From: a virus
Length of the DNA stretch: 25,022 nucleotides
IMG/VR virus record: IMGVR_UViG_3300009161_000215
Coordinates: 1-25,022 of that record
Strand: one strand, 5' to 3'
In this document: positions 1,684 to 21,262 of the stretch, in pieces
Layout of the letters: each line of letters begins with the position of its first letter
How positions within the stretch are numbered: the first letter of the stretch is position 1
Notes under the pieces: model-generated
Databases searched by the model: none
Seen by the model: only the letters and a program-made list of their open reading frames with translations
Told to the model about the DNA's origin: nothing
Made by a program: the position numbers and the translations under genes

Positions 1684-1980
1684 CTACCACGGAATTCCAG
1701 TTGCTGAAACAGGATTTTTAAGTAATTCTATTTGCTGTGCAAGAGATGCTTCTGTTGCATCTTTGTCTACTCCACTAGCCCAAATCCAATCTAATACCTC
1801 AGCCATTGTTACATTAGCATAAGGCACGCTAGGTGTACCATCTGCCCATGAGCAGGTTGAGTATGTAGATGTTTGATACTCGCCATCAACAGCATTACAT
1901 TGCCAATGTGCAGTAGTTATAAAGCCATTTGCAGTCTCATAGTTTGTTTGTGATACATTCCAGTTATATACGATTGCCAT
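1684..1980 (-). CDS. 98-aa conserved phage protein (MAIVYNW family)
   Basis: The protein starts MAIVYNWNVSQTNYETANGF and has HWQCNAVDGEYQTSTYSTCS, a central PSVPYANVTMAEVLDWIW and the ending NPVSATGIPW. This layout (opening MAIVYNW, a 'H W . . . . . DG' core, a 'PY...T...V..W' motif and a C-terminal PW) matches a widespread small family found beside fibre genes in many tailed phages (I believe it is the one called DUF7936). The function is unknown. The start overlaps the fibre stop (TAATG), so it is translated with the fibre. It may help attach or fold the fibre, but that is only inference. Confidence 0.75.
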   Translation of the reverse strand: MAIVYNWNVSQTNYETANGFITTAHWQCNAVDGEYQTSTYSTCSWADGTPSVPYANVTMAEVLDWIWASGVDKDATEASLAQQIELLKNPVSATGIPW

Positions 1981-4900
1981 TATTTATTCTCCAATGCTGT
2001 TAGTCGGGTTGTTAATGATTCTATTAATGCACTCATTTCTTGTATGGCTTTTACATACAAAACACACATATTTTGATATTTCAAACTATCAGGAACTTGT
2101 TGCCCATTAATCTCTTTATAAATAACAAAATCTTTTAAACCGAGTGCATCAATTTCTTCAGCAATAAATCCCGCATTTATTGGTTCATCTGCTAAATCTA
2201 CACCCTCATTAATATATTTAAAACTAACAGGTCTAAGTTTATTTATTATTTCTAAACCTTTAGTATAGTTTTCTACATTTGTTTTGTAACGCAACGATGA
2301 TGTATTAGCGTACATTACTCCATTAGCGTTGTACCAAGACAAAACAGCAAATACACCATTAGGGGGAGTACCAAAAGATAAATAACCACTTGTAGTAAGA
2401 GCAAACTGATTAACTGACCCGTTTGTTCCAAAATTAAGAGCATAAGAACCACTTGTTGTAATGCCAGCACCAGAAGTTGCAAGTGAAACATTACCGCTTG
2501 AGTCTATACGCATCCGTTCTGTTGGTGCTGTATCAGTTGTTACACTTCTTGTAGCAAAATATAAATCTGCATATCCTCCTGATGTGGCACTAGTTACTAT
2601 ACTTCCAATAGCACATTGAACATTTGTTGAACCATTGCCACCAAATCCAACTTCATTAACATAGCCAAGATTTCCTGAATTTGCGGCTAAACAAATTAAA
2701 GATTGTCCGATTGCAGTTTTTTGGTCTCCTGCACCACTTCCAACTTGTAATCTTCTTGTGGCAGTTGTAGTTCCTATACCTACATTACCACTAGTGTCAA
2801 TCATTAAATCATGTGCTGACCCAATAGTTGTTCCACCAGTAGCACTTGTTCTTCCAATGCCAAACTCACCACCCACAAGCATATTGTTTGAAATCACCCA
2901 ATTTTTATTAGATATAGAACCAGCCAAAACAATATAATTTCCGTTATTGTTTACATTATTTCCAAAAGTTGCGACCTTTCCAGAATTTTGGTAAACTTGC
3001 AAAACTGCATCAGGACTAGGAGTACCTATACCTAATTTTCCATCAACCTGTAATGTCATTAATCCTGTTGTTGCTGTAGCAAAAGTAAGAGTTCCACTTC
3101 CACTTCCACCTGAAGTAAACAAAGAAAAGCCATCACCTTGATGTCCAAGAACTAACTCAGATGCACTACCTGAATTATTAGTACCAATAAATAAAGTTGA
3201 TGGTCTACTATTTACAGCAGTAGGACTTTGATTGTTTATTGATACTATTCCATCACTAGTAATACGCATCCGTTCTGAATTACCAACATTAAAAGCAACT
3301 GGGACAAAACCACCTGTTGTTCTGTAACTTGCATTAAATGTAAACTTGCTACCATCATATCCAATACCTAAAAGAGTAGTGTTTGCATTTGCTTCTATTT
3401 GTATCCCTGAGAATGCACCTGAATCGTTTAACTGTTTAACAGAAACAATACCACGAGATACTCCTCCTGTTGTTGGGACAGTCGTAGTTCCTACAAGTAA
3501 CGAACCACTAGAGTCTATACGCATACCTTCAGAATCATTGCCATAAGTAAATACAACTTCACCAGCACCACCATTAACAGTTCCTCTACTACCAATTCTC
3601 ATGCCAAAATTTGCCCATTGCATTACTTGACCAAAACCATAATAATTTTTAGCAACAAAACTTGCATTAAAATCCCCACCTGATGTACCTGTGCTTTGAA
3701 TAAGAACCATGCCTGTATCAGCACTTCCACCATATCCATTATTACCTTGCGCACTTAGAACATGAACTTGTGCAATAGCACTACTAGTACCTACTAATAA
3801 ATTACCAGCACTAGTAATTCTAACTTTTTCTCCATCGTTATACTCAAAAGTAAAAGCCTCGGTTGAGCCTTCCATTGTCAAATCCCACCAATTACCAGCA
3901 CCTGCGTTTTGGCGAAAGCGACTAATCAAATCTTTGGCTGCGTTTGCATTAGTAAGTTGAATAAGCGTGTTTGATGTGCTTGAAGCGGATAAATTTAATG
4001 GTGAATTACTTGGGGATAAAATACTTAATACATTTGTATCCCAAGTCAAATTAGCACTATCTGTTAATAATCCACTAGCACCTGCAAATGTTACTCGACC
4101 ACTTGTTAATGCACTATTCTTAATAGAACTTGTAGTTAGAAATGAGCCATCCCATGTTAGACCTGATGAACCACCTAATACTCCACTATTATTAAATTGA
4201 ACTTGTGTATTGCTTCCACCGATAGTAGGAGTAGTTCCTGAGTAACCTGAATAGCCCGATATGCCTGAGAACCCTGAGTAGCCTGATACACCACTTCCAC
4301 TATAGCCCGATATGCCCGAATAGCCTGAGAAGCCTGATGCACCATCTATTCCTGAGTAACCACTATAGCCTGAAATCCCTGAGAAACCTGATGCACCATT
4401 TATGCCTGAGATGCCTGAGTAGCCTGAGTAGCCTGAGTATCCTGATGTGCCATCCTGTCCTGAGATACCTGAGTACCCTGAGTAACCCGATGTTCCTGAA
4501 TAACCCGATGCACCATTTTCTCCTGAAATTCCACTTGCACCTGAGTAGCCTGATATACCTGACCATCCTGAAATTCCACTAGCACCTGATATTCCCGACC
4601 ATCCTGAAATTCCTGAAAACCCCGAATACCCTGAGTAGCCAGATGTTCCACTTACCCCTGCTGTAATGGCTAAAAATAAAGGATGATTGTCTGCAAAATC
4701 AGTTGTGCCTGTGCCACCTGAAGATATAAGACTAACTGGTACTGTCCAATAACTATTACTTGTATTTGGATTTATGTTTGTAGGTGTACCAGTTATTAAC
4801 CATGACTGATAATTACCTGATACATTTTGGTCTTGAATAGTAAACTTTTGTGTAGGTTGTAACAATGCTAAAAATATATCAATATCGTCACCATTGTTGG

Positions 4901-5999
4901 TCATGTGATTAATATTTATTTGTGTAGCATTACTTTGTGTTGCAGTATTCCAAAGTAAAAATCCAGTTGCAGGTTGTCCACTTGTTTGGACTGCTTCTGC
5001 ATAATATAAAAATAAACTAGATGATTGTCCTATAGCACCCGAATATCCGCTATAGCCTGAAATTCCTGAGAAACCACTCCACCCACTAATTCCTGAGAAG
5101 CCTGATGTGCCAACAGCACCGCTATAGCCTGAGTAACCCGAAGTTCCTGAAAAGCCTGATGCACCATTTTGCCCATTAATTCCTGAAAATCCACTATACC
5201 CACTAATTCCTGAGAAACCTGATTGACCAACAGCACCTGAGTAGCCACTAAATCCTGAGAAACCCGATGAACCATTTTGACCTGAGATTCCTGAATAACC
5301 ACTATAACCACTAATTCCCGAATAGCCTGAGTAACCTGATTCACCACTCCATCCTGAAACACCTGAACCACTATATCCTGATATGCCCGAATATCCGCTA
5401 TATCCTGAGATGCCACTATCTCCACTAAATCCACTTATGCCACTATTGCCACTAAATCCTGATATACCTGAATAGCCCGATTCACCAGACCAACCACTAT
5501 AACCAGAGATTCCACTATCACCACTATATCCTGATACACCACTTCCTGAGTAGCCTGATATACCTGAAAAGCCTGAGTAACCCGATTCCCCTGAGAATCC
5601 TGAGTAACCTGAAAACCCTGATAAACCTTGTGGTCCAACTATCTGACCTGCATCAAACCAAGCAGAGCCATCCCATATCCATAAATCGCCATCAGCAGTT
5701 ACTATGTATGCATCATTAACTTGATTGCCTGTTGGTGGCAAATCTTGAACTGTAGCCACTTCACCTTTGACATTAATACTTGTGCCTTGCTGACCGCTAT
5801 AGCCCGAATAACCGCTTATCCCTGAACCTGAATAGCCACTATAGCCAGAATAGCCAGAGTACCCAGAGTACCCTGAAATCCCTGATATACCCTGTGGTCC
5901 AATTAATCCTCTATCAATATTAATTTTTTGTGTAGGTGTTGGAGTTACTGCAATCTTTACATTGTTCTGGTCAATGACTGTTACATTCATATTGCCCAT
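1980..5999 (-). CDS. Collagen-like tail fibre with S74 self-cleaving chaperone
   Basis: A 1339-aa fibre. Three blocks of Gly-X-Ser triplets (X mostly Tyr, Phe, Ile or Trp) lie at about 31-75, 122-322 and 449-589, separated by compact domains at 76-121 (with GDLWIWDGSAWFDAG) and 323-448. Residues 590-1230 form a beta-rich shaft with repeated ERMRIDSSG-like and GIGT-like modules, common in phage fibres. The C-terminus is an S74 intramolecular chaperone: SSLRYKTNV places S1234 and K1239 at the expected five-residue spacing, so autocleavage before S1234 would release about 106 aa after trimer folding. The ribosome-binding site GGAAGG lies eight bases upstream. It should be the main receptor-binding or side fibre; which surface sugar or protein it binds is not shown. 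Confidence 0.92.
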   Translation of the reverse strand: MGNMNVTVIDQNNVKIAVTPTPTQKINIDRGLIGPQGISGISGYSGYSGYSGYSGYSGSGISGYSGYSGQQGTSINVKGEVATVQDLPPTGNQVNDAYIVTADGDLWIWDGSAWFDAGQIVGPQGLSGFSGYSGFSGESGYSGFSGISGYSGSGVSGYSGDSGISGYSGWSGESGYSGISGFSGNSGISGFSGDSGISGYSGYSGISGYSGSGVSGWSGESGYSGYSGISGYSGYSGISGQNGSSGFSGFSGYSGAVGQSGFSGISGYSGFSGINGQNGASGFSGTSGYSGYSGAVGTSGFSGISGWSGFSGISGYSGYSGAIGQSSSLFLYYAEAVQTSGQPATGFLLWNTATQSNATQININHMTNNGDDIDIFLALLQPTQKFTIQDQNVSGNYQSWLITGTPTNINPNTSNSYWTVPVSLISSGGTGTTDFADNHPLFLAITAGVSGTSGYSGYSGFSGISGWSGISGASGISGWSGISGYSGASGISGENGASGYSGTSGYSGYSGISGQDGTSGYSGYSGYSGISGINGASGFSGISGYSGYSGIDGASGFSGYSGISGYSGSGVSGYSGFSGISGYSGYSGTTPTIGGSNTQVQFNNSGVLGGSSGLTWDGSFLTTSSIKNSALTSGRVTFAGASGLLTDSANLTWDTNVLSILSPSNSPLNLSASSTSNTLIQLTNANAAKDLISRFRQNAGAGNWWDLTMEGSTEAFTFEYNDGEKVRITSAGNLLVGTSSAIAQVHVLSAQGNNGYGGSADTGMVLIQSTGTSGGDFNASFVAKNYYGFGQVMQWANFGMRIGSRGTVNGGAGEVVFTYGNDSEGMRIDSSGSLLVGTTTVPTTGGVSRGIVSVKQLNDSGAFSGIQIEANANTTLLGIGYDGSKFTFNASYRTTGGFVPVAFNVGNSERMRITSDGIVSINNQSPTAVNSRPSTLFIGTNNSGSASELVLGHQGDGFSLFTSGGSGSGTLTFATATTGLMTLQVDGKLGIGTPSPDAVLQVYQNSGKVATFGNNVNNNGNYIVLAGSISNKNWVISNNMLVGGEFGIGRTSATGGTTIGSAHDLMIDTSGNVGIGTTTATRRLQVGSGAGDQKTAIGQSLICLAANSGNLGYVNEVGFGGNGSTNVQCAIGSIVTSATSGGYADLYFATRSVTTDTAPTERMRIDSSGNVSLATSGAGITTSGSYALNFGTNGSVNQFALTTSGYLSFGTPPNGVFAVLSWYNANGVMYANTSSLRYKTNVENYTKGLEIINKLRPVSFKYINEGVDLADEPINAGFIAEEIDALGLKDFVIYKEINGQQVPDSLKYQNMCVLYVKAIQEMSALIESLTTRLTALENK
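4233..4655 (-). repeat. Collagen-like repeat block 3 of the fibre
   Basis: Residues 449-589. The units include GWSGISG, GASG and GENG, with one GSGVSG step near the end. The block leads into the TPTIGGSNTQVQFNNSG segment, which begins the beta-shaft. Confidence 0.85.
5034..5636 (-). repeat. Collagen-like repeat block 2 of the fibre
   Basis: This is the longest triplet block (residues 122-322). It starts GPQGLSGFSGYSGFSG and has about 65 Gly-X-Y units, with X often aromatic, occasional GES, GDS or GNS units, two GSGVSG register steps, and GAVG or GQNG units. Confidence 0.85.
5775..5909 (-). repeat. Collagen-like repeat block 1 of the fibre
   Basis: This stretch encodes GLIGPQGISGISGYSGYSG and continues as Gly-Tyr-Ser triplets (residues 31-75). 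A GSG step (one residue short of a triplet) interrupts the register near residues 60-63. Confidence 0.85.
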
Positions 6000-10537: not shown

Positions 10538-10990
10538 TTAATCCTTTAACATTTTAGTGTAGACTTTTTCTGTAAAAGAATAACCCATGTATTCAAACAA
10601 AGAAGTATTATCTGAATGAATTTTTGTACCATATTTAATCATATTTACATTTAATGATTTTAAATATTGTTCTGCAAATTTAAACATTTTGATTGCTGTT
10701 CTGCCTTTTCTATACTCAGGTTTTAAATAATAAATATCTTCAGTAGCCAATACACAATCAATATAATGTAAATGTTTGCAAATAAAAAATACTATATACC
10801 CAATTATTTTTCCTTCATCTTTACACAATACAACTTTTAACATATCTTTTTCATGGATAGCAAAGTACATTGCATAGTCAGGCTTTAATTCATAATCTTT
10901 TAATAAAGATATTTCTTCATAATGGTCTTGGAACAATCTTTGTATTTCATTAAAACATTCTTTTGCATTTCCTATTTCATATGTAATCAT
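10538..10990 (-). CDS. GNAT-like N-acetyltransferase in the tail-tip operon
   Basis: A 150-aa protein with the GNAT architecture: an N-terminal helix (AKECFNEIQRLFQDHYEE), strands with IIGYIVFFICKHLH, then a strand-loop-helix EDIYYLKPEYRKGRTAIKMF that matches the acetyl-CoA pyrophosphate-binding motif (R/Q-x-x-G-x-A), and the C-terminal YGTKIHSDNTSLFEYMGYSF where the final helix and 'MGY' turn usually lie. It would transfer an acetyl group to an amine; the substrate is unknown. In lambda the slot between the minor tail proteins and gpJ holds gpK and gpI, and none of those is present here. The gene overlaps the upstream gene (ATGA) and precedes the tip gene by one base, so it is expressed with the tail tip. 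Confidence 0.8.
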   Translation of the reverse strand: MITYEIGNAKECFNEIQRLFQDHYEEISLLKDYELKPDYAMYFAIHEKDMLKVVLCKDEGKIIGYIVFFICKHLHYIDCVLATEDIYYLKPEYRKGRTAIKMFKFAEQYLKSLNVNMIKYGTKIHSDNTSLFEYMGYSFTEKVYTKMLKD

Positions 10991-17145: not shown

Positions 17146-17811
17146 TTACATCACCAAAGGTTTATATGGTCTTAATAATTGTGATACTCCAAAAGGAATA
17201 TTAGTTAATCTTCCATCTAAAGTATCGCTTCGATTGTTATATAAATGAGTTAATAATAATAATCCTGCCTGTTTAATTACAGGATAAGTTCCAATAGGAT
17301 TAGAATTTAATGAATAAATAACTACAACAGGGTTAGTCATAAAAGCATTAATATCATTTGGCAATGAATTAATAACTATTTTATTTCCTGTTGGGTCATA
17401 AAAATATTCTGTACTTGCAATAGTAGTTAATACTGGTGGAGTATCCATGTTGTAATACTTTACATAATCAATGGTTACTCCAGTTGAATTATTTGTGTCC
17501 TGAGATATTTCTGGCAAATCCAAGGATGTTTGCATCCCCATAGAATTGTTTGTAGCCTGATAGTAGGCTTTATATTGCACAGGTAATATTGACATACCAA
17601 GGTAATCTTCTATAGCCATCCTAGTGGCTAATTCAAGGCTTTTTAAATAAGTATCTTGTGATTCATCTTCAATTAAATTTAACTGTTGAGTTATTTCATC
17701 CAAAGTAAGCCAAGCAGTATAAATATCTCTATCTATCTGCTCGACCTTCTGGTAACTCCAAGGGTTCTGTGGAGAACCTAAAGCATTAGTTGTTGATAAA
17801 TTTGAAGGCAT
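17146..17811 (-). CDS. Head-tail connector (gp6 / phiE125 gp8-like)
   Basis: A 221-aa adaptor expected to form a ring below the portal. The N-terminal region LTLDEITQQLNLIEDESQD followed by a helix with LELATRMAIEDYLGMSI is the usual start of the gp6-like/phiE125 gp8 connector family: a helical bundle in which short helices carry 'I...L.DYLG'. The middle and C-terminal parts include beta-rich stretches and a helix ending QLLRPYKPLVM. It starts inside the MCP2 stop codon (TAATG), so its translation is probably coupled to MCP2. Its position directly after the capsid genes and before the closure protein fits the neck role. Confidence 0.8.
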   Translation of the reverse strand: MPSNLSTTNALGSPQNPWSYQKVEQIDRDIYTAWLTLDEITQQLNLIEDESQDTYLKSLELATRMAIEDYLGMSILPVQYKAYYQATNNSMGMQTSLDLPEISQDTNNSTGVTIDYVKYYNMDTPPVLTTIASTEYFYDPTGNKIVINSLPNDINAFMTNPVVVIYSLNSNPIGTYPVIKQAGLLLLTHLYNNRSDTLDGRLTNIPFGVSQLLRPYKPLVM

Positions 17812-19058
17812 TAACTAGCCGCCATTGTCAAACAAACTCCTGCAAAAACATCACGAATTGTAGAACATACTCTTTTCTCAGCAAACAGGGTTACAAAACC
17901 TACGCTTGTTTGTTCAAACATCTGTAATTTCATTACTTCATTATCAGCAATAGAAATAAATCTTTCCCAATCTGCTAAATAAATAGGTGTTGTAGATGCT
18001 CCAATTTCAGGCATATATGGATTAGCAATAACTTCATGTCCAAACATATTACCTACAGCAGAACCTTCTGAACTACCAACTTCCACAAATACTGGCATAC
18101 CATTTTGAGAAGTAAGTTCACGAACTGCTTTAATTGTTGTAGGATGCATCATCCAACAAGTTGTATCATAGTTCCAATATTGTGCAGGTAAGGCTGATGC
18201 CAAGGCTACTAAATTATTATAGGTAATTGCACTAGCACTTCCACTATCTACTTTTAAAACAGTATGTATTCCATTACTTATTGCTATGCCACTACTTCCA
18301 AAACTAGCGGCACTTGCACTTTTAGAATAACTGTTAATTCCTCTTAATCCCAATGTGCCACCATAGTAACCAGTTAAAGAACCTGACTGGTCATTATTAA
18401 GCATCATAGATAAGGCTTCTTGTTGAGCAAATTCTTTTGCAATATCTTCTACAATAGCCTGTTCAATAGCATTAACATCATCCATAAATGCTGTACGAAT
18501 TGGCACACTTGCCTGAATTGCTCTCATAGGTAATTGCCAGATAGCAGTATTTAAACCTGTAACAGCATTATTGTTGTTAATAGGATAATATCCCCAAGGA
18601 TTACCCAAAGCAGTAATTGTTGTAGATGATGCCGTAGTATCACCCACAACATTATATGTCCCTGTTGCACCTGTACCAGTTCCTAATGAGGATATATAAG
18701 TTCCTGCCGTAACTCCTGTACCTGAAAGTATTTGACCAACTCTTAGCACTCCACTTGCTACTGCTGTTACTGTCATTACTGATGCAGTTATAGATGCAGT
18801 TACTACAGCACCATTTTGAATGTTTGTAATGTTTCCTGTTTTGGCTACAAACTGCACATCTGAATCAGCAGTTGTAAATTGTCTTGCATATTTACGAATA
18901 GGATTACCCATTCGCAATGAAGCAAAGGCATCATCATAATATATACGACCACCAATTCCTGAACCAGAGCCTGTTAAGGCTGATGCTTCTTTTAAATTTA
19001 TTTCTGCTTTGCCATCTTTAATGGCTGACTGTATTGCTTCAAGAATTAGATTTGCCAT
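17811..19058 (-). CDS. Second HK97-fold capsid protein (MCP2) with inserted domain
   Basis: A 415-aa paralogue of MCP1. Shared landmarks run in the same order: [20 protein letters not shown] matches GGRTGYDPVFVALRQTNPLR of MCP1; IWQL, then [10 protein letters not shown] against FPVRTATLDD; NNDQ against QNDDQ; LPAQYW against LPTQYW; and the C-terminal [16 protein letters not shown] against YEQTQVGFITFYGEKR. It lacks the long N-terminal coil (only about 30 residues before the shell domain). It also has an extra segment at 84-152, rich in Gly, Thr and Val, exactly where MCP1 has its short E-loop turn. It follows a terminator-like hairpin, has a weak ribosome-binding site, and its stop overlaps the next start (TAATG). 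It could form pentamers, replace some MCP1 subunits, or display the extra domain on the surface. The capsid fold call is firm; the role is inference. Confidence 0.88.
18603..18809 (-). other. Inserted Gly/Thr-rich beta domain in MCP2 (E-loop position)
   Basis: Residues 84-152 of MCP2, including [20 protein letters not shown] and [12 protein letters not shown], separate two segments that are adjacent in MCP1 (QKVGN and AAWGYAI, against AKTGN and PWGYYPI). The pattern [20 protein letters not shown]...GTGTGxxGTYxV resembles a small beta module that I know from many phage structural and fibre proteins. It probably folds independently. Confidence 0.7.
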
Positions 19059-19077
19059 ATATTTATTCCAAATAAGT

Positions 19078-19104
19078 TAAAAAAAGAAGGGGAGATTTCT
19101 CCCC
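19078..19104 (-). terminator. Intrinsic terminator-like hairpin between the two capsid genes
   Basis: On the minus strand, just after the MCP1 stop, the sequence forms a GGGGAG / CTCCCC stem with an AAAT loop (plus strand stem 19089-19094 and 19099-19104) followed by TTCTTTTTTT. This is a good rho-independent terminator shape. Because it lies inside a co-directional structural operon it probably acts partially, letting MCP1 transcripts exceed those of MCP2 and the tail genes, or it protects the 3' end of MCP1 mRNA. It works only in the minus direction: no T-run follows the stem on the other strand. Confidence 0.75.
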
Positions 19105-19111
19105 CACCTCT

Positions 19112-20455
19112 TTAGTCGTTTGCAGTATGTGTACTTCTGTAAGCAACAATAGCATTAGCATCATGGATACTGGATGCAACACGCTTTTCGCCATAGAAAG
19201 TTATAAAACCGACTTGGGTCTGTTCGTACCTTCTTAGAATCATATTCAATCTATCAATGATTACATGACCACGATTGAAATCACCAAAGTACATTGGATA
19301 CAAATCTGCTTTATCTACACCTGCATAGTTTGGAGTATCACAGAACTGATTAACTGTTACATCAAATCCTAGTAATTGTCCAACAATACCATCTGGTCTA
19401 GCCAAACCATCAACATAAATTGGTCTGCCATTATCATCAACCAAACCACGAATTGCCTGTAGTTGGATTGGGTTAATTAACCATGATGTGCTTGGTGTCC
19501 AGTATTGAGTAGGCAAACTATAAATAAGATTGATTACATCAGCATAAGTAATGTTATTTGCAGAAGTAGATGTACCATTTGTAGTTAATTGGTCATATGT
19601 AGCAATCTTAGATAAACCATTTGATGTGGCTACACCAGTTGAGCCATAAACTACTGGATGAACTGTTCCACCTGCAAATGCACCTACATAACCATACTGA
19701 TTTAAACCACGCAAACCATTAGTACCACCAGTTGCATCATATGGAGCAGAATCAGTTTGGTCATCGTTTTGAACCATTGAACGACCTTCTGATTGACTAA
19801 ACTCAGCCAACATATCAGAAACAATGTTTGACTCTAAACCATCAATGTCATCTAAAGTTGCTGTACGAACAGGGAAAGCACAGTTCAAATCTTTAAGGAT
19901 TAACTGCCAAATCAAAGTGTCTTGAGTTGTAGCACCACCATTGTTTTGAATTGCATATCCCCAAGCCGCACCTGCATTTCCAACTTTTTGTCTTAGTTGG
20001 TAAGCAGAACCATCAGTAGATACTGAACGACTTACACCACGCAAAGGATTGGTTTGACGCAAAGCAACAAACACAGGGTCATAGCCTGTACGACCACCCA
20101 CATTGTAACCAGAACCATATCCTTGTGGATTACCTAGCAAAGATGATTCCTGCATAAATGCATCATACTGGTCTACAGATTCAAACATCTTAATTTCTTT
20201 TTCTGTACGACTATTCGATTTATAGAAATCACGAACTTGCTCTTTAACAGAACGATTAACTTCTTCAGTTAAACTTTTATAAGTTTTGATTTGTGCAGGT
20301 GCTTGAACAGAAGCAACTTTGGCTTCTAATGCTTCAAACTTCTCAGACATCTCAGTTAATACTTCTAACTTTGTGTTGATTTCTGCTTTAATTTCTTCAA
20401 TCTTGGCTACTTGTTGGGCTTCGATTGTATCTAGTTTTTCGATAACTTCTTTCAT
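19112..20455 (-). CDS. Major capsid protein 1 (HK97 fold, with N-terminal scaffolding coil)
   Basis: HK97-fold capsid protein, 447 aa. Residues 1-55 are heptad-rich and charged (EKLDTIEAQQVAKIEEIKAE), followed by a charged linker to about 105; together these match the delta (scaffolding) domain removed by the prohead protease in HK97 relatives. The mature shell part begins near SLLGNPQGYGSGYNVGGRTG. An E-loop-like hairpin lies at about 150-180 (QLRQKVGNAGAAWGYAIQNN), the spine-helix region near DDIDGLESNIVSDMLAEF, and the conserved C-terminus is RRYEQTQVGFITFYGEKR. It has a strong AGGAG site and is followed by a terminator-like hairpin, as expected for the most abundant virion protein. The next gene encodes a paralogue. 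Confidence 0.93.
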   Translation of the reverse strand: MKEVIEKLDTIEAQQVAKIEEIKAEINTKLEVLTEMSEKFEALEAKVASVQAPAQIKTYKSLTEEVNRSVKEQVRDFYKSNSRTEKEIKMFESVDQYDAFMQESSLLGNPQGYGSGYNVGGRTGYDPVFVALRQTNPLRGVSRSVSTDGSAYQLRQKVGNAGAAWGYAIQNNGGATTQDTLIWQLILKDLNCAFPVRTATLDDIDGLESNIVSDMLAEFSQSEGRSMVQNDDQTDSAPYDATGGTNGLRGLNQYGYVGAFAGGTVHPVVYGSTGVATSNGLSKIATYDQLTTNGTSTSANNITYADVINLIYSLPTQYWTPSTSWLINPIQLQAIRGLVDDNGRPIYVDGLARPDGIVGQLLGFDVTVNQFCDTPNYAGVDKADLYPMYFGDFNRGHVIIDRLNMILRRYEQTQVGFITFYGEKRVASSIHDANAIVAYRSTHTAND

Positions 20456-20461
20456 CTTGAA

Positions 20462-20466
20462 CTCCT
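20462..20466 (-). promoter_or_regulatory. Strong Shine-Dalgarno site for MCP1
   Basis: The minus strand reads AAATAGGAGTTCAAGATG. A full AGGAG lies six bases before the MCP1 ATG at 20455 and overlaps the protease stop codon TAG. This is the clearest ribosome-binding site among the head genes and contrasts with the weak GGA, nine bases from the start, that precedes MCP2. Confidence 0.75.
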
Positions 20467-21262
20467 ATTTATTAATGCGATTAGATAATGCCTTTAATAA
20501 TTCTCTTTCCTCTAGGGCTTTTAAAATATTATTGGCTTCTGGTTCTACGGCATCATTATCACAATGCTCCGTTTTTTTCTTAATCAATTCTGAAGATACA
20601 TCACGCATCTCTAAAACTTTTTTAAGAATAGAAGATGCCGTAGTTGCATCTTTTTTGGAAAGCCCTGCATCACGCAAAGTTCTCTCAATTAGTCTAGGAT
20701 TGGCATTGCCATCCTTATCAAAATATTCTAATCTTTGGATTTCAGCATTTGGGTTATTCGGGTACATAACAACTGAAACTTCTCTAAGACCACCTTTAGT
20801 AATTTGGAAATAGCCTTCATCTTCATCATCCCCTATTGGATTGCCTTGCTCATCCACCATTCTGGCTTCATCAGCATATGCTCCTACAGATACTCCACCA
20901 AACATATTAGGTGCTTCTTTTAATACAGAATACAAATCAGAACCACCAACAGTATTCATGTAAATTTTACCTTTGGCAGACATACCATCATCTTCCATAA
21001 TAAATTCATCCCATTGTCCTACTGGCATACCCATATCGTTATGGTTTAAAAACATTGGTAATGGTTTACCTGCATTGGCAAACTCATCTGCCCATTGTGC
21101 AAAACCTTCAGGTTTATAAAAGAACTTTCTGCCATCTGCTCCTTCTCTAGGTCCAAATGTAGTCACTTTGGCTTCAATCATCCCAGATGGGTTTTCACCT
21201 TCATCTGCCATTTTTCCTAGTGATAATTTTGCTTCACAGATTAGATTTAGGTTTTGTTTCAT
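20465..21262 (-). CDS. Prohead maturation protease (HK97 gp4-like)
   Basis: A serine protease that acts inside the procapsid, cleaving the scaffolding segment of the capsid protein and itself. At 265 aa it is slightly longer than HK97 gp4. The expected catalytic residues are visible: H74 in FLNHND, S125 in GGVSVGAYA, and a likely third residue E161 in GGLREVSVVMYPNNPNA, a stretch typical of this family. The charged, helical C-terminal third (about 185-265) resembles the part usually removed during maturation. The start ATG at 21262 has GGGG eight to nine bases upstream. It sits directly before the capsid gene that carries a delta-like N-terminal coil, its probable substrate. Confidence 0.9.
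   Translation of the reverse strand: MKQNLNLICEAKLSLGKMADEGENPSGMIEAKVTTFGPREGADGRKFFYKPEGFAQWADEFANAGKPLPMFLNHNDMGMPVGQWDEFIMEDDGMSAKGKIYMNTVGGSDLYSVLKEAPNMFGGVSVGAYADEARMVDEQGNPIGDDEDEGYFQITKGGLREVSVVMYPNNPNAEIQRLEYFDKDGNANPRLIERTLRDAGLSKKDATTASSILKKVLEMRDVSSELIKKKTEHCDNDAVEPEANNILKALEERELLKALSNRINK

What the first reader, a model, noticed from the sequence alone, without database searches (positions are those of the whole stretch)
18603..18809. A 69-residue beta module inserted at the E-loop position of MCP2
MCP1 reads ...QKVGN-AGAAWGYAI; MCP2 reads ...AKTGN-[about 69 residues]-PWGYYPI. The insert contains [18 protein letters not shown] and [12 protein letters not shown], a pattern I know from many phage structural proteins and fibres. 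If the E-loop call is right, it would place an extra domain on the capsid surface or at inter-capsomer contacts, making a built-in decoration or adhesion domain.
Basis: partly seen in the sequence, partly recalled or inferred. Interest (0 to 1): 0.7.

Follow-up and report, generated by a model that had tools for sequence, protein, structure and literature searches.

The report
Plug-in beta module in phage capsid
One of two related capsid proteins in an uncultured phage carries a small, separately folding domain in the loop that links capsid subunits, and the same domain turns up inside many unrelated virus-particle proteins, so phages seem to pass it around as a plug-in part whose job is still unproven.

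Summary
MCP2 (19058..17811, minus strand) is an HK97-fold capsid protein. Residues 84-152 (window 18603-18809) have no counterpart in its neighbour MCP1. Relatives lacking the insert show the empty site: 77 of 103 non-redundant MCP2-type ORFs lack it, 26 carry it at the same place, and 0 of 101 MCP1 ORFs carry it. AlphaFold2 folds the insert as a compact six-strand domain, both inside MCP2 and alone (mean pLDDT 90.7). It sits between the strands before the spine helix, which is the E-loop. The module reaches no Pfam or NCBIfam cut-off and has no significant PDB sequence match. It recurs, often in tandem, in tail sheaths, terminators, adaptors, nozzle-type, cement and decoration proteins, a tail tube and fibres. 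Carriers are not one clade on the MCP2 flank tree, and one pair shows local mosaicism. My reading: an exchangeable virion display module tethered in the E-loop. Surface exposure and an adhesion or reinforcing role are inferred. E-loop insertion domains are already known (T4, crAss001, Family 2B encapsulins), so this is a new variant of a known kind.

The parts
18603..18809 (-). Inserted module, MCP2 residues 84-152 (69 aa), six predicted beta strands
   Evidence: absent in 77 of 103 MCP2-type ORFs; AF2 strands 84-91, 94-102, 110-113, 121-125, 133-138, 142-151; folds alone at mean pLDDT 90.7
18810..18830 (-). Linker residues 77-83 (ITNIQNG) before the module; present as ITNVQQG in the nearest insert-free clade, so it is older E-loop sequence
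   Evidence: alignment; low pLDDT block 71-80 = 62
17811..19058 (-). MCP2, 415 aa, HK97-fold capsid protein that carries the insert
   Evidence: Phage_capsid 8.6e-23; major_cap_HK97 1.2e-24; GTA capsid 6tsu_A5 Z 25.9, rmsd 2.6, 254 aligned
18840..18857 (-). E-loop outgoing strand, residues 68-73
   Evidence: DSSP on the AF2 model
18495..18548 (-). E-loop return strands, residues 171-188
   Evidence: DSSP on the AF2 model
18399..18467 (-). Spine helix, residues 198-220; the preceding P186 equivalent aligns to HK97 gp5 residue 191
19112..20455 (-). MCP1, 447 aa, paralogous HK97-fold capsid protein without the insert, with a longer N-terminal region
   Evidence: Phage_capsid 7.6e-34; 0 of 101 non-redundant MCP1 ORFs carry the module; lies directly upstream of MCP2 in 130 of 132 loci with enough sequence
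20465..21262 (-). Head maturation protease (context)
   Evidence: Peptidase_S78 7.4e-07; phrog_80 9.5e-13
17146..17811 (-). Head-tail adaptor directly after MCP2 (context)
   Evidence: phrog_40 2.6e-11

Best explanation
MCP2 is the second of two HK97-fold capsid proteins of a P19250A-like phage. Its E-loop hairpin is interrupted by an autonomous small beta domain tethered by flexible linkers. Shown: the insert, its separability, its E-loop position in the predicted fold, its recurrence in many other virion protein families, and its patchy, partly mosaic history within MCP2. Inferred: phages move the module between exposed loops of virion proteins by recombination. In MCP2 it projects from the assembled capsid as a built-in, many-copy decoration. 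Its most likely contribution is weak, generic attachment to the cell surface or environment (as proposed for phage Ig-like domains), with local reinforcement of inter-subunit contacts as a secondary possibility.
For: Clean presence/absence at one site: 26 of 103 MCP2-type ORFs with, 77 without, 0 of 101 MCP1. Confident fold in place (insert blocks pLDDT 83-92) and alone (90.7; pTM 0.79) with matching strands. E-loop: the insert lies between strands 68-73 and 171-188, right before spine helix 198-220; HK97-fold matches 6tsu_A5 Z 25.9 and 1ohg_A Z 18.2; hhalign puts MCP2 P186 at HK97 191, so the insert ends roughly at HK97 157, upstream of K169 (K169 as an E-loop residue from PMC5701804 passages). 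Same module in other virion proteins: of 222 module-bearing ORFs in 177 loci, 188 fall in 14 families, among them sheath 11, tail terminator 10, SU10-type adaptor 47, gp10/stabilise-type 35, cement 16, decoration 4, MCP2 22, with 1-3 copies (names). Exchange: one clade of insert-bearing MCP2 is rejected on the flank tree (AU p 3.1e-4; without L101 8.5e-45), with at least three changes of state. Window against L007 differs at 28 of 156 nt in codons 101-152 but 43 of 1089 elsewhere (Fisher 2.5e-9).
Against: No experiment or solved structure covers the module; the PDB fold matches are weak (best Foldseek E 0.014, best Z 7.2). The pose on the shell is unknown because the linkers are low confidence, and AF2 was run on a monomer, so outside or inside cannot be told. 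The evidence for more than one arrival rests on two rows (L101, L027), and L027's insert is closest to other MCP2 inserts (72.6% against 62.7-63.8% for other protein families), so within-family recombination rather than fresh capture is possible. The insert's pN/pS is not consistently lower than the core's (higher in 36 of 78 pairs), which does not demand a strong specific function. That MCP2 is in virions is not shown. Adhesion is argued by analogy only.
Confidence: 0.55

Rival explanations
1. Capsid reinforcement: the module acts mainly as a fused cement protein that clamps neighbouring capsomers at three-fold or inter-capsomer contacts, like the crAss001 or T4 E-loop I-domains.
For: E-loop position. 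The best Foldseek PDB match is a 124-residue chain of the Arthrobacter phage Bridgette capsid entry 8eci (E 0.014, prob 1.00, TMq 0.62, 24% identity; Z 6.7). Bridgette has dimeric capsid cement proteins (PMC13033339 passage); that chain 1 is that protein is my inference. The crAss001 E-loop beta-barrel adds to capsid wall thickness and stability (PMC10172136 passages).
Against: 77 of 103 relatives do without it. The same module sits in sheath, terminator, adaptor and nozzle-type proteins, where capsomer clamping cannot be its job. The Bridgette match is weak and its sequence was not compared.
Confidence: 0.22
2. Tolerated passenger: the module is a recombination-prone, well-folding sequence that inserts into permissive loops of virion proteins with no selected role at this site.
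For: Patchy presence, at least three state changes and local mosaicism; the same sequence type in very different proteins and in tandem; almost no charged residues.
Against: Kept under purifying selection (median pN/pS 0.257) and retained through a diverse clade of 22 tree rows, five of them on a long branch with the window.
Confidence: 0.18
3. The insert is not in the E-loop but in the P- or A-domain.
For: The N-terminal part of MCP2 is poorly predicted (residues 16-37 pLDDT under 50), and the local hhalign to HK97 covers only residues from just before the spine helix on.
Against: A strand, then the insert, then two strands and the spine helix; HK97-fold alignments span model 42-414; P186 maps to HK97 191.
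Confidence: 0.05

Closest known systems
crAss001 major capsid protein E-loop I-domain (PMC10172136, passages)
   Same: beta-barrel domain inserted in the E-loop of an HK97-fold capsid protein
   Different: residues 79-180 and widespread in crassviruses; ours is 69 residues, present in a minority of the relatives collected, and its module is found in many other virion proteins; no fold match between the two was listed
T4 capsid protein insertion domain on the E-loop (PMC5701804 and PMC10172136, passages)
   Same: extra domain on the E-loop; T4 also has two HK97-fold shell proteins (PMC12407261, passages)
   Different: described as one helix and six strands; gp23 and gp24 share 17% identity while MCP1 and MCP2 share 37% over 279 aligned columns
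Family 2B encapsulins with a CBD in the E-loop (PMC12407261, passages)
   Same: E-loop domain insertion, with two shell proteins in some operons
   Different: the CBD is a cyclic-nucleotide-binding fold and both shell proteins carry it; here only MCP2 does
Phage Ig-like domains added to tail sheath and other virion proteins (PMC9230969, passages)
   Same: small beta domain shared among unrelated virion proteins, proposed to aid adhesion or stability
   Different: no Pfam hit for the insert at E up to 1; weak fold matches are to EF-Tu-type and ATPase beta barrels
PHROG 21413 (unknown) and PHROG 38233 (tail fiber protein)
   Same: profiles contain a segment that matches the module
   Different: these are whole-protein clusters (595 and 896 positions), not a description of the module

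Membership tests
HK97-fold major capsid protein | sequence match to Phage_capsid / major_cap_HK97 above the curated cut-off | tested here: met
   81.5 bits against 24.2; 87.2 against 27.5
HK97-fold major capsid protein | predicted fold matches solved HK97-fold capsids | tested here: met
   6tsu_A5 Z 25.9, rmsd 2.6, 254 aligned; 1ohg_A Z 18.2, rmsd 3.5, 249 aligned
HK97-fold major capsid protein | gene lies after portal and maturation protease | tested here: met
   protease 20465-21262 and MCP1 precede it; P19250A has the same order with an annotated portal
E-loop insertion-domain capsid proteins (T4, crAss001, Family 2B encapsulin type) | compact domain interrupting the E-loop hairpin | tested here: met
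   predicted structure and homology mapping
E-loop insertion-domain capsid proteins (T4, crAss001, Family 2B encapsulin type) | domain exposed on the capsid surface and making inter-subunit assemblies | not testable with these tools
   needs a capsid map; the monomer model has low-confidence linkers
E-loop insertion-domain capsid proteins (T4, crAss001, Family 2B encapsulin type) | same fold as the crAss001, P22 or T4 I-domain | tested here: inconclusive
   only fold searches of the module were run
Phage Ig-like domains (I-set, FN3, BIG2) | match to an Ig-type Pfam family | tested here: not met
   no Pfam family for the insert at E up to 1
Phage Ig-like domains (I-set, FN3, BIG2) | Ig beta-sandwich fold | tested here: inconclusive
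   weak matches only, mostly EF-Tu-type barrels at Z 5.3-7.2
Bridgette-type capsid cement protein | same fold and sequence family | tested here: inconclusive
   Foldseek E 0.014, TMq 0.62; Z 6.7, 23% identity; sequence not compared
Module of PHROG 21413 / 38233 | profile match of the isolated insert | tested here: met
   7.3e-13 and 9.4e-11

The most novel reading that the evidence does not exclude
P19250A-like phages build a two-component HK97 shell in which only MCP2 capsomers display an exchangeable E-loop domain. The domain belongs to a so far uncurated family of plug-in modules that phages shuffle among almost every exposed virion part (capsid, cement, decoration, adaptor, nozzle, terminator, tube, sheath, baseplate, fibre), so that one module type can coat different parts of a virion.
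Probability: 0.35. Interest if true: 0.76.

Novelty: new variant of a known kind. Interest (0 to 1): 0.6.

Why it matters
The E-loop insertion domains read about here are features of whole capsid lineages. Here insert-bearing and insert-free proteins exist side by side in one family, with an exact empty site. That makes it directly testable what such a domain does: compare or delete it. The same module in many virion protein families, matching no curated family model, suggests an overlooked general part of phage particles. The pairing with a second, insert-free HK97 protein raises the question of how two shell proteins divide the work; a 2025 paper names T4 as the single virus known to do this (PMC12407261, passages).

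Tried and rejected
tblastn of the insert (E up to 1e-5) and of a three-module stretch of L222 (E up to 0.01) in the 50,697-record phage collection found nothing. Because BLAST masks low-complexity sequence, this does not show absence from isolates. PDB sequence searches with the insert and with the 36-row module profile gave nothing significant (best E 0.44 and 0.22). I rejected chance resemblance, a frameshift or assembly artefact and a second copy elsewhere in the window (one hit among 164 ORFs of 40 aa or more, MCP2 itself).

The crAss001 and P22 I-domain folds did not appear among the listed fold matches of the module, which proves nothing. A motif-string search of the paper library returned 0 papers; sequence strings are rarely printed, so I do not claim the module is undescribed. 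A global hhalign to HK97 was useless and only the local alignment was used. The accession of phage Bridgette was not known to me, so its cement protein could not be fetched and compared.

Limits: 26 of 103 is not a population frequency, because the loci came from searches with MCP2 and MCP1 that kept the best 80 of 122 and of at least 586 relatives, and the 103 include a window-derived copy (L002) and P19250A (L004). The tree used 88 MCP2 rows (24 with insert, the window among them) after thinning near-copies, plus 6 of 101 MCP1 rows; it is the quick method, with SH-aLRT 90 for the clade that holds L101. The carriers tested as one clade were chosen by the trait. The pN/pS test used 13 of the carriers. 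Host-family counts cover loci from three searches, two of which kept only the best 80; they include loci of the same or near-identical contigs and leave 34 of 222 ORFs unassigned. Names of the families come from one or a few representatives each. Two of the 14 family groups (L211 and L215 types) and L222 have no PHROG name beyond the module itself.

Full report
Observation. The window is a 25,022-base virus record with an ordinary caudovirus head and tail gene set on the minus strand: terminase, portal, protease, MCP1, MCP2, adaptor and tail genes (terminase and portal read from the ORF list and from the gene order of P19250A). MCP1 (447 aa) and MCP2 (415 aa) are both HK97-family capsid proteins and align to each other at 37% over 279 columns and 45% over 47 columns, with nothing aligned for MCP2 residues 77-151. 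P19250A, a Methylophilaceae phage, has the same pair, and its MCP2 equivalent lacks the insert.

Empty site. I collected relatives from IMG/VR with MCP2 and with MCP1 as queries, extracted ORFs and made them non-redundant. Of 103 MCP2-type ORFs of 300 aa or more, 26 carry the insert, all at the same place, and 77 lack it; 0 of 101 MCP1-type ORFs carry it. MCP1 lies directly upstream of MCP2 in 130 of 132 loci with enough sequence (loci overlap and include near-copies).

Structure. AlphaFold2 on MCP2 with 72 aligned sequences gave mean pLDDT 76.8; the insert blocks from residue 81 to 150 score 83-92 and hold six strands, while blocks 71-80, 151-160 and 161-170 score 62, 57 and 47. The module predicted alone with 36 diverse copies gave mean pLDDT 90.7 and pTM 0.79 with the same strands. 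The whole model matches HK97-fold capsids: GTA 6tsu_A5 Z 25.9 (rmsd 2.6, 254 aligned), HK97 1ohg_A Z 18.2 (rmsd 3.5, 249 aligned). The order is strand 68-73, insert, strands 171-176 and 179-188, then spine helix 198-220. A profile of insert-free MCP2 aligned to HK97 gp5 places the residue equivalent to MCP2 P186 at HK97 191 (E 2e-4), so by counting back the insert ends near HK97 157, on the E-loop and upstream of the cross-linking K169 (K169 in the E-loop: PMC5701804 passages). The counting back is an inference, since the alignment itself starts at 191.

What the module is. The isolated insert reaches no Pfam or NCBIfam family cut-off and has no significant PDB sequence match, but matches segments of PHROG 21413 and 38233. 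Fold matches of the module in the PDB are weak: best Foldseek 8eci_1, a 124-residue chain of the Bridgette entry (E 0.014, prob 1.00), then ATPase and EF-Tu-type barrels; best VIA Z 7.2, none at 8 or more. In predicted viral structures it matches 15 proteins at E 0.001 or less, the first a 414-aa HK97 major capsid protein, others fibre, P22 gp10-like and collagen-type proteins.

Where else it occurs. Module searches in IMG/VR and GTDB contigs gave 222 module-bearing ORFs in 177 loci; 188 fall into 14 families by their flanks. Representatives are tail sheath (phrog_205, DUF3383), Phage_tail_terminator_9, SU10-type adaptor, Phage_stabilise/gp10-type, Phage_cement/XM1 gp53, head decoration phrog_49, Phage_tube_2, baseplate wedge phrog_438, and others without a name. 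Copies range from one to three. Adjacent genes of one phage can both carry it: 9 loci appear in both the sheath list (11) and the terminator list (10). The SU10 nozzle protein has Ig-like nozzle domains (PMC9509320 passages), which may be a parallel for the gp10-type carriers; I did not test that.

History in MCP2. On a tree of 94 rows without the insert columns, insert presence needs at least three changes: a main clade of 22 rows, L101 inside another clade (SH-aLRT 90), and L027 inside an otherwise insert-free group (99*). Holding all 24 carriers together is rejected (AU p 3.1e-4), also without L101 (8.5e-45). L027's insert is closest to MCP2 inserts of L098/L016/L014 (72.6%), against 62.7-63.8% for its best matches in other families, so it may have come from another MCP2. 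The window and L007 are 91-98% identical in the other segments but 81-83% in codons 101-152: 28 of 156 against 43 of 1089 differences, Fisher 2.5e-9, and 0 of 10,000 shuffles reach the observed peak. L005, L085 and L008 show no such excess. Selection on the insert resembles that on the core.

Interpretation. Known E-loop domains include crAss001 (PMC10172136 passages), T4 (PMC5701804 passages) and Family 2B encapsulins (PMC12407261 passages). Architecturally this works like an E-loop insertion domain. Its distinguishing points are that the module family is shared across virion proteins and that presence varies among close relatives. Because the module sits on so many different virion parts, I favour a generic display or weak-adhesion role over a capsid-specific clamp; Ig-like additions to tail sheaths have been given the same two candidate roles (PMC9230969 passages). 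None of these roles was tested here. PMC12407261 states that T4 is the single virus using two HK97-fold proteins for separate roles; whether MCP1 and MCP2 do so is open.

Paper record: passages only were read for PMC12407261, PMC5701804, PMC13033339, PMC9230969, PMC8163748, PMC8024684, PMC10172136, PMC9710869, PMC10276861, PMC9509320 and PMC11445458; all other titles were seen in search listings only.

Noticed in passing
window 17811-20455: Two tandem HK97-fold capsid genes; only MCP1 has a long N-terminal region before the capsid match (Pfam match starts at residue 127). The pair is conserved in 130 of 132 testable loci, which suggests a two-component shell.
   Followed up: partly
L209, L236, L237, L282, L293, L295, L311, L326, L332: Neighbouring tail sheath and tail terminator genes both carry the module, the sheath with one or two copies at a similar position.
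   Followed up: partly
L221, L244-L248 and others: SU10-type adaptor and P22 gp10-type proteins on the same contigs both carry the module, the latter usually in two copies.
   Followed up: partly
Indivirus ILV1 proteins A0A1V0SCQ2 and A0A1V0SDM6: The fold search matched the module in collagen-repeat proteins of a giant virus (53% and 43% identity), so it may have crossed beyond phages.
   Followed up: no
window 1980-5999: A 1339-aa fibre with many collagen-type repeats and a C-terminal Peptidase_S74 chaperone match.
   Followed up: no
window 10538-10990 and 926-1507: By eye, an acetyltransferase-like ORF inside the tail genes and a methyltransferase-like ORF beyond the fibre; not searched.
   Followed up: no
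L007 2200-3444: MCP2 nearly identical to the window's outside codons 101-152, with a locally divergent module, a sign of recombination inside the insert.
   Followed up: yes
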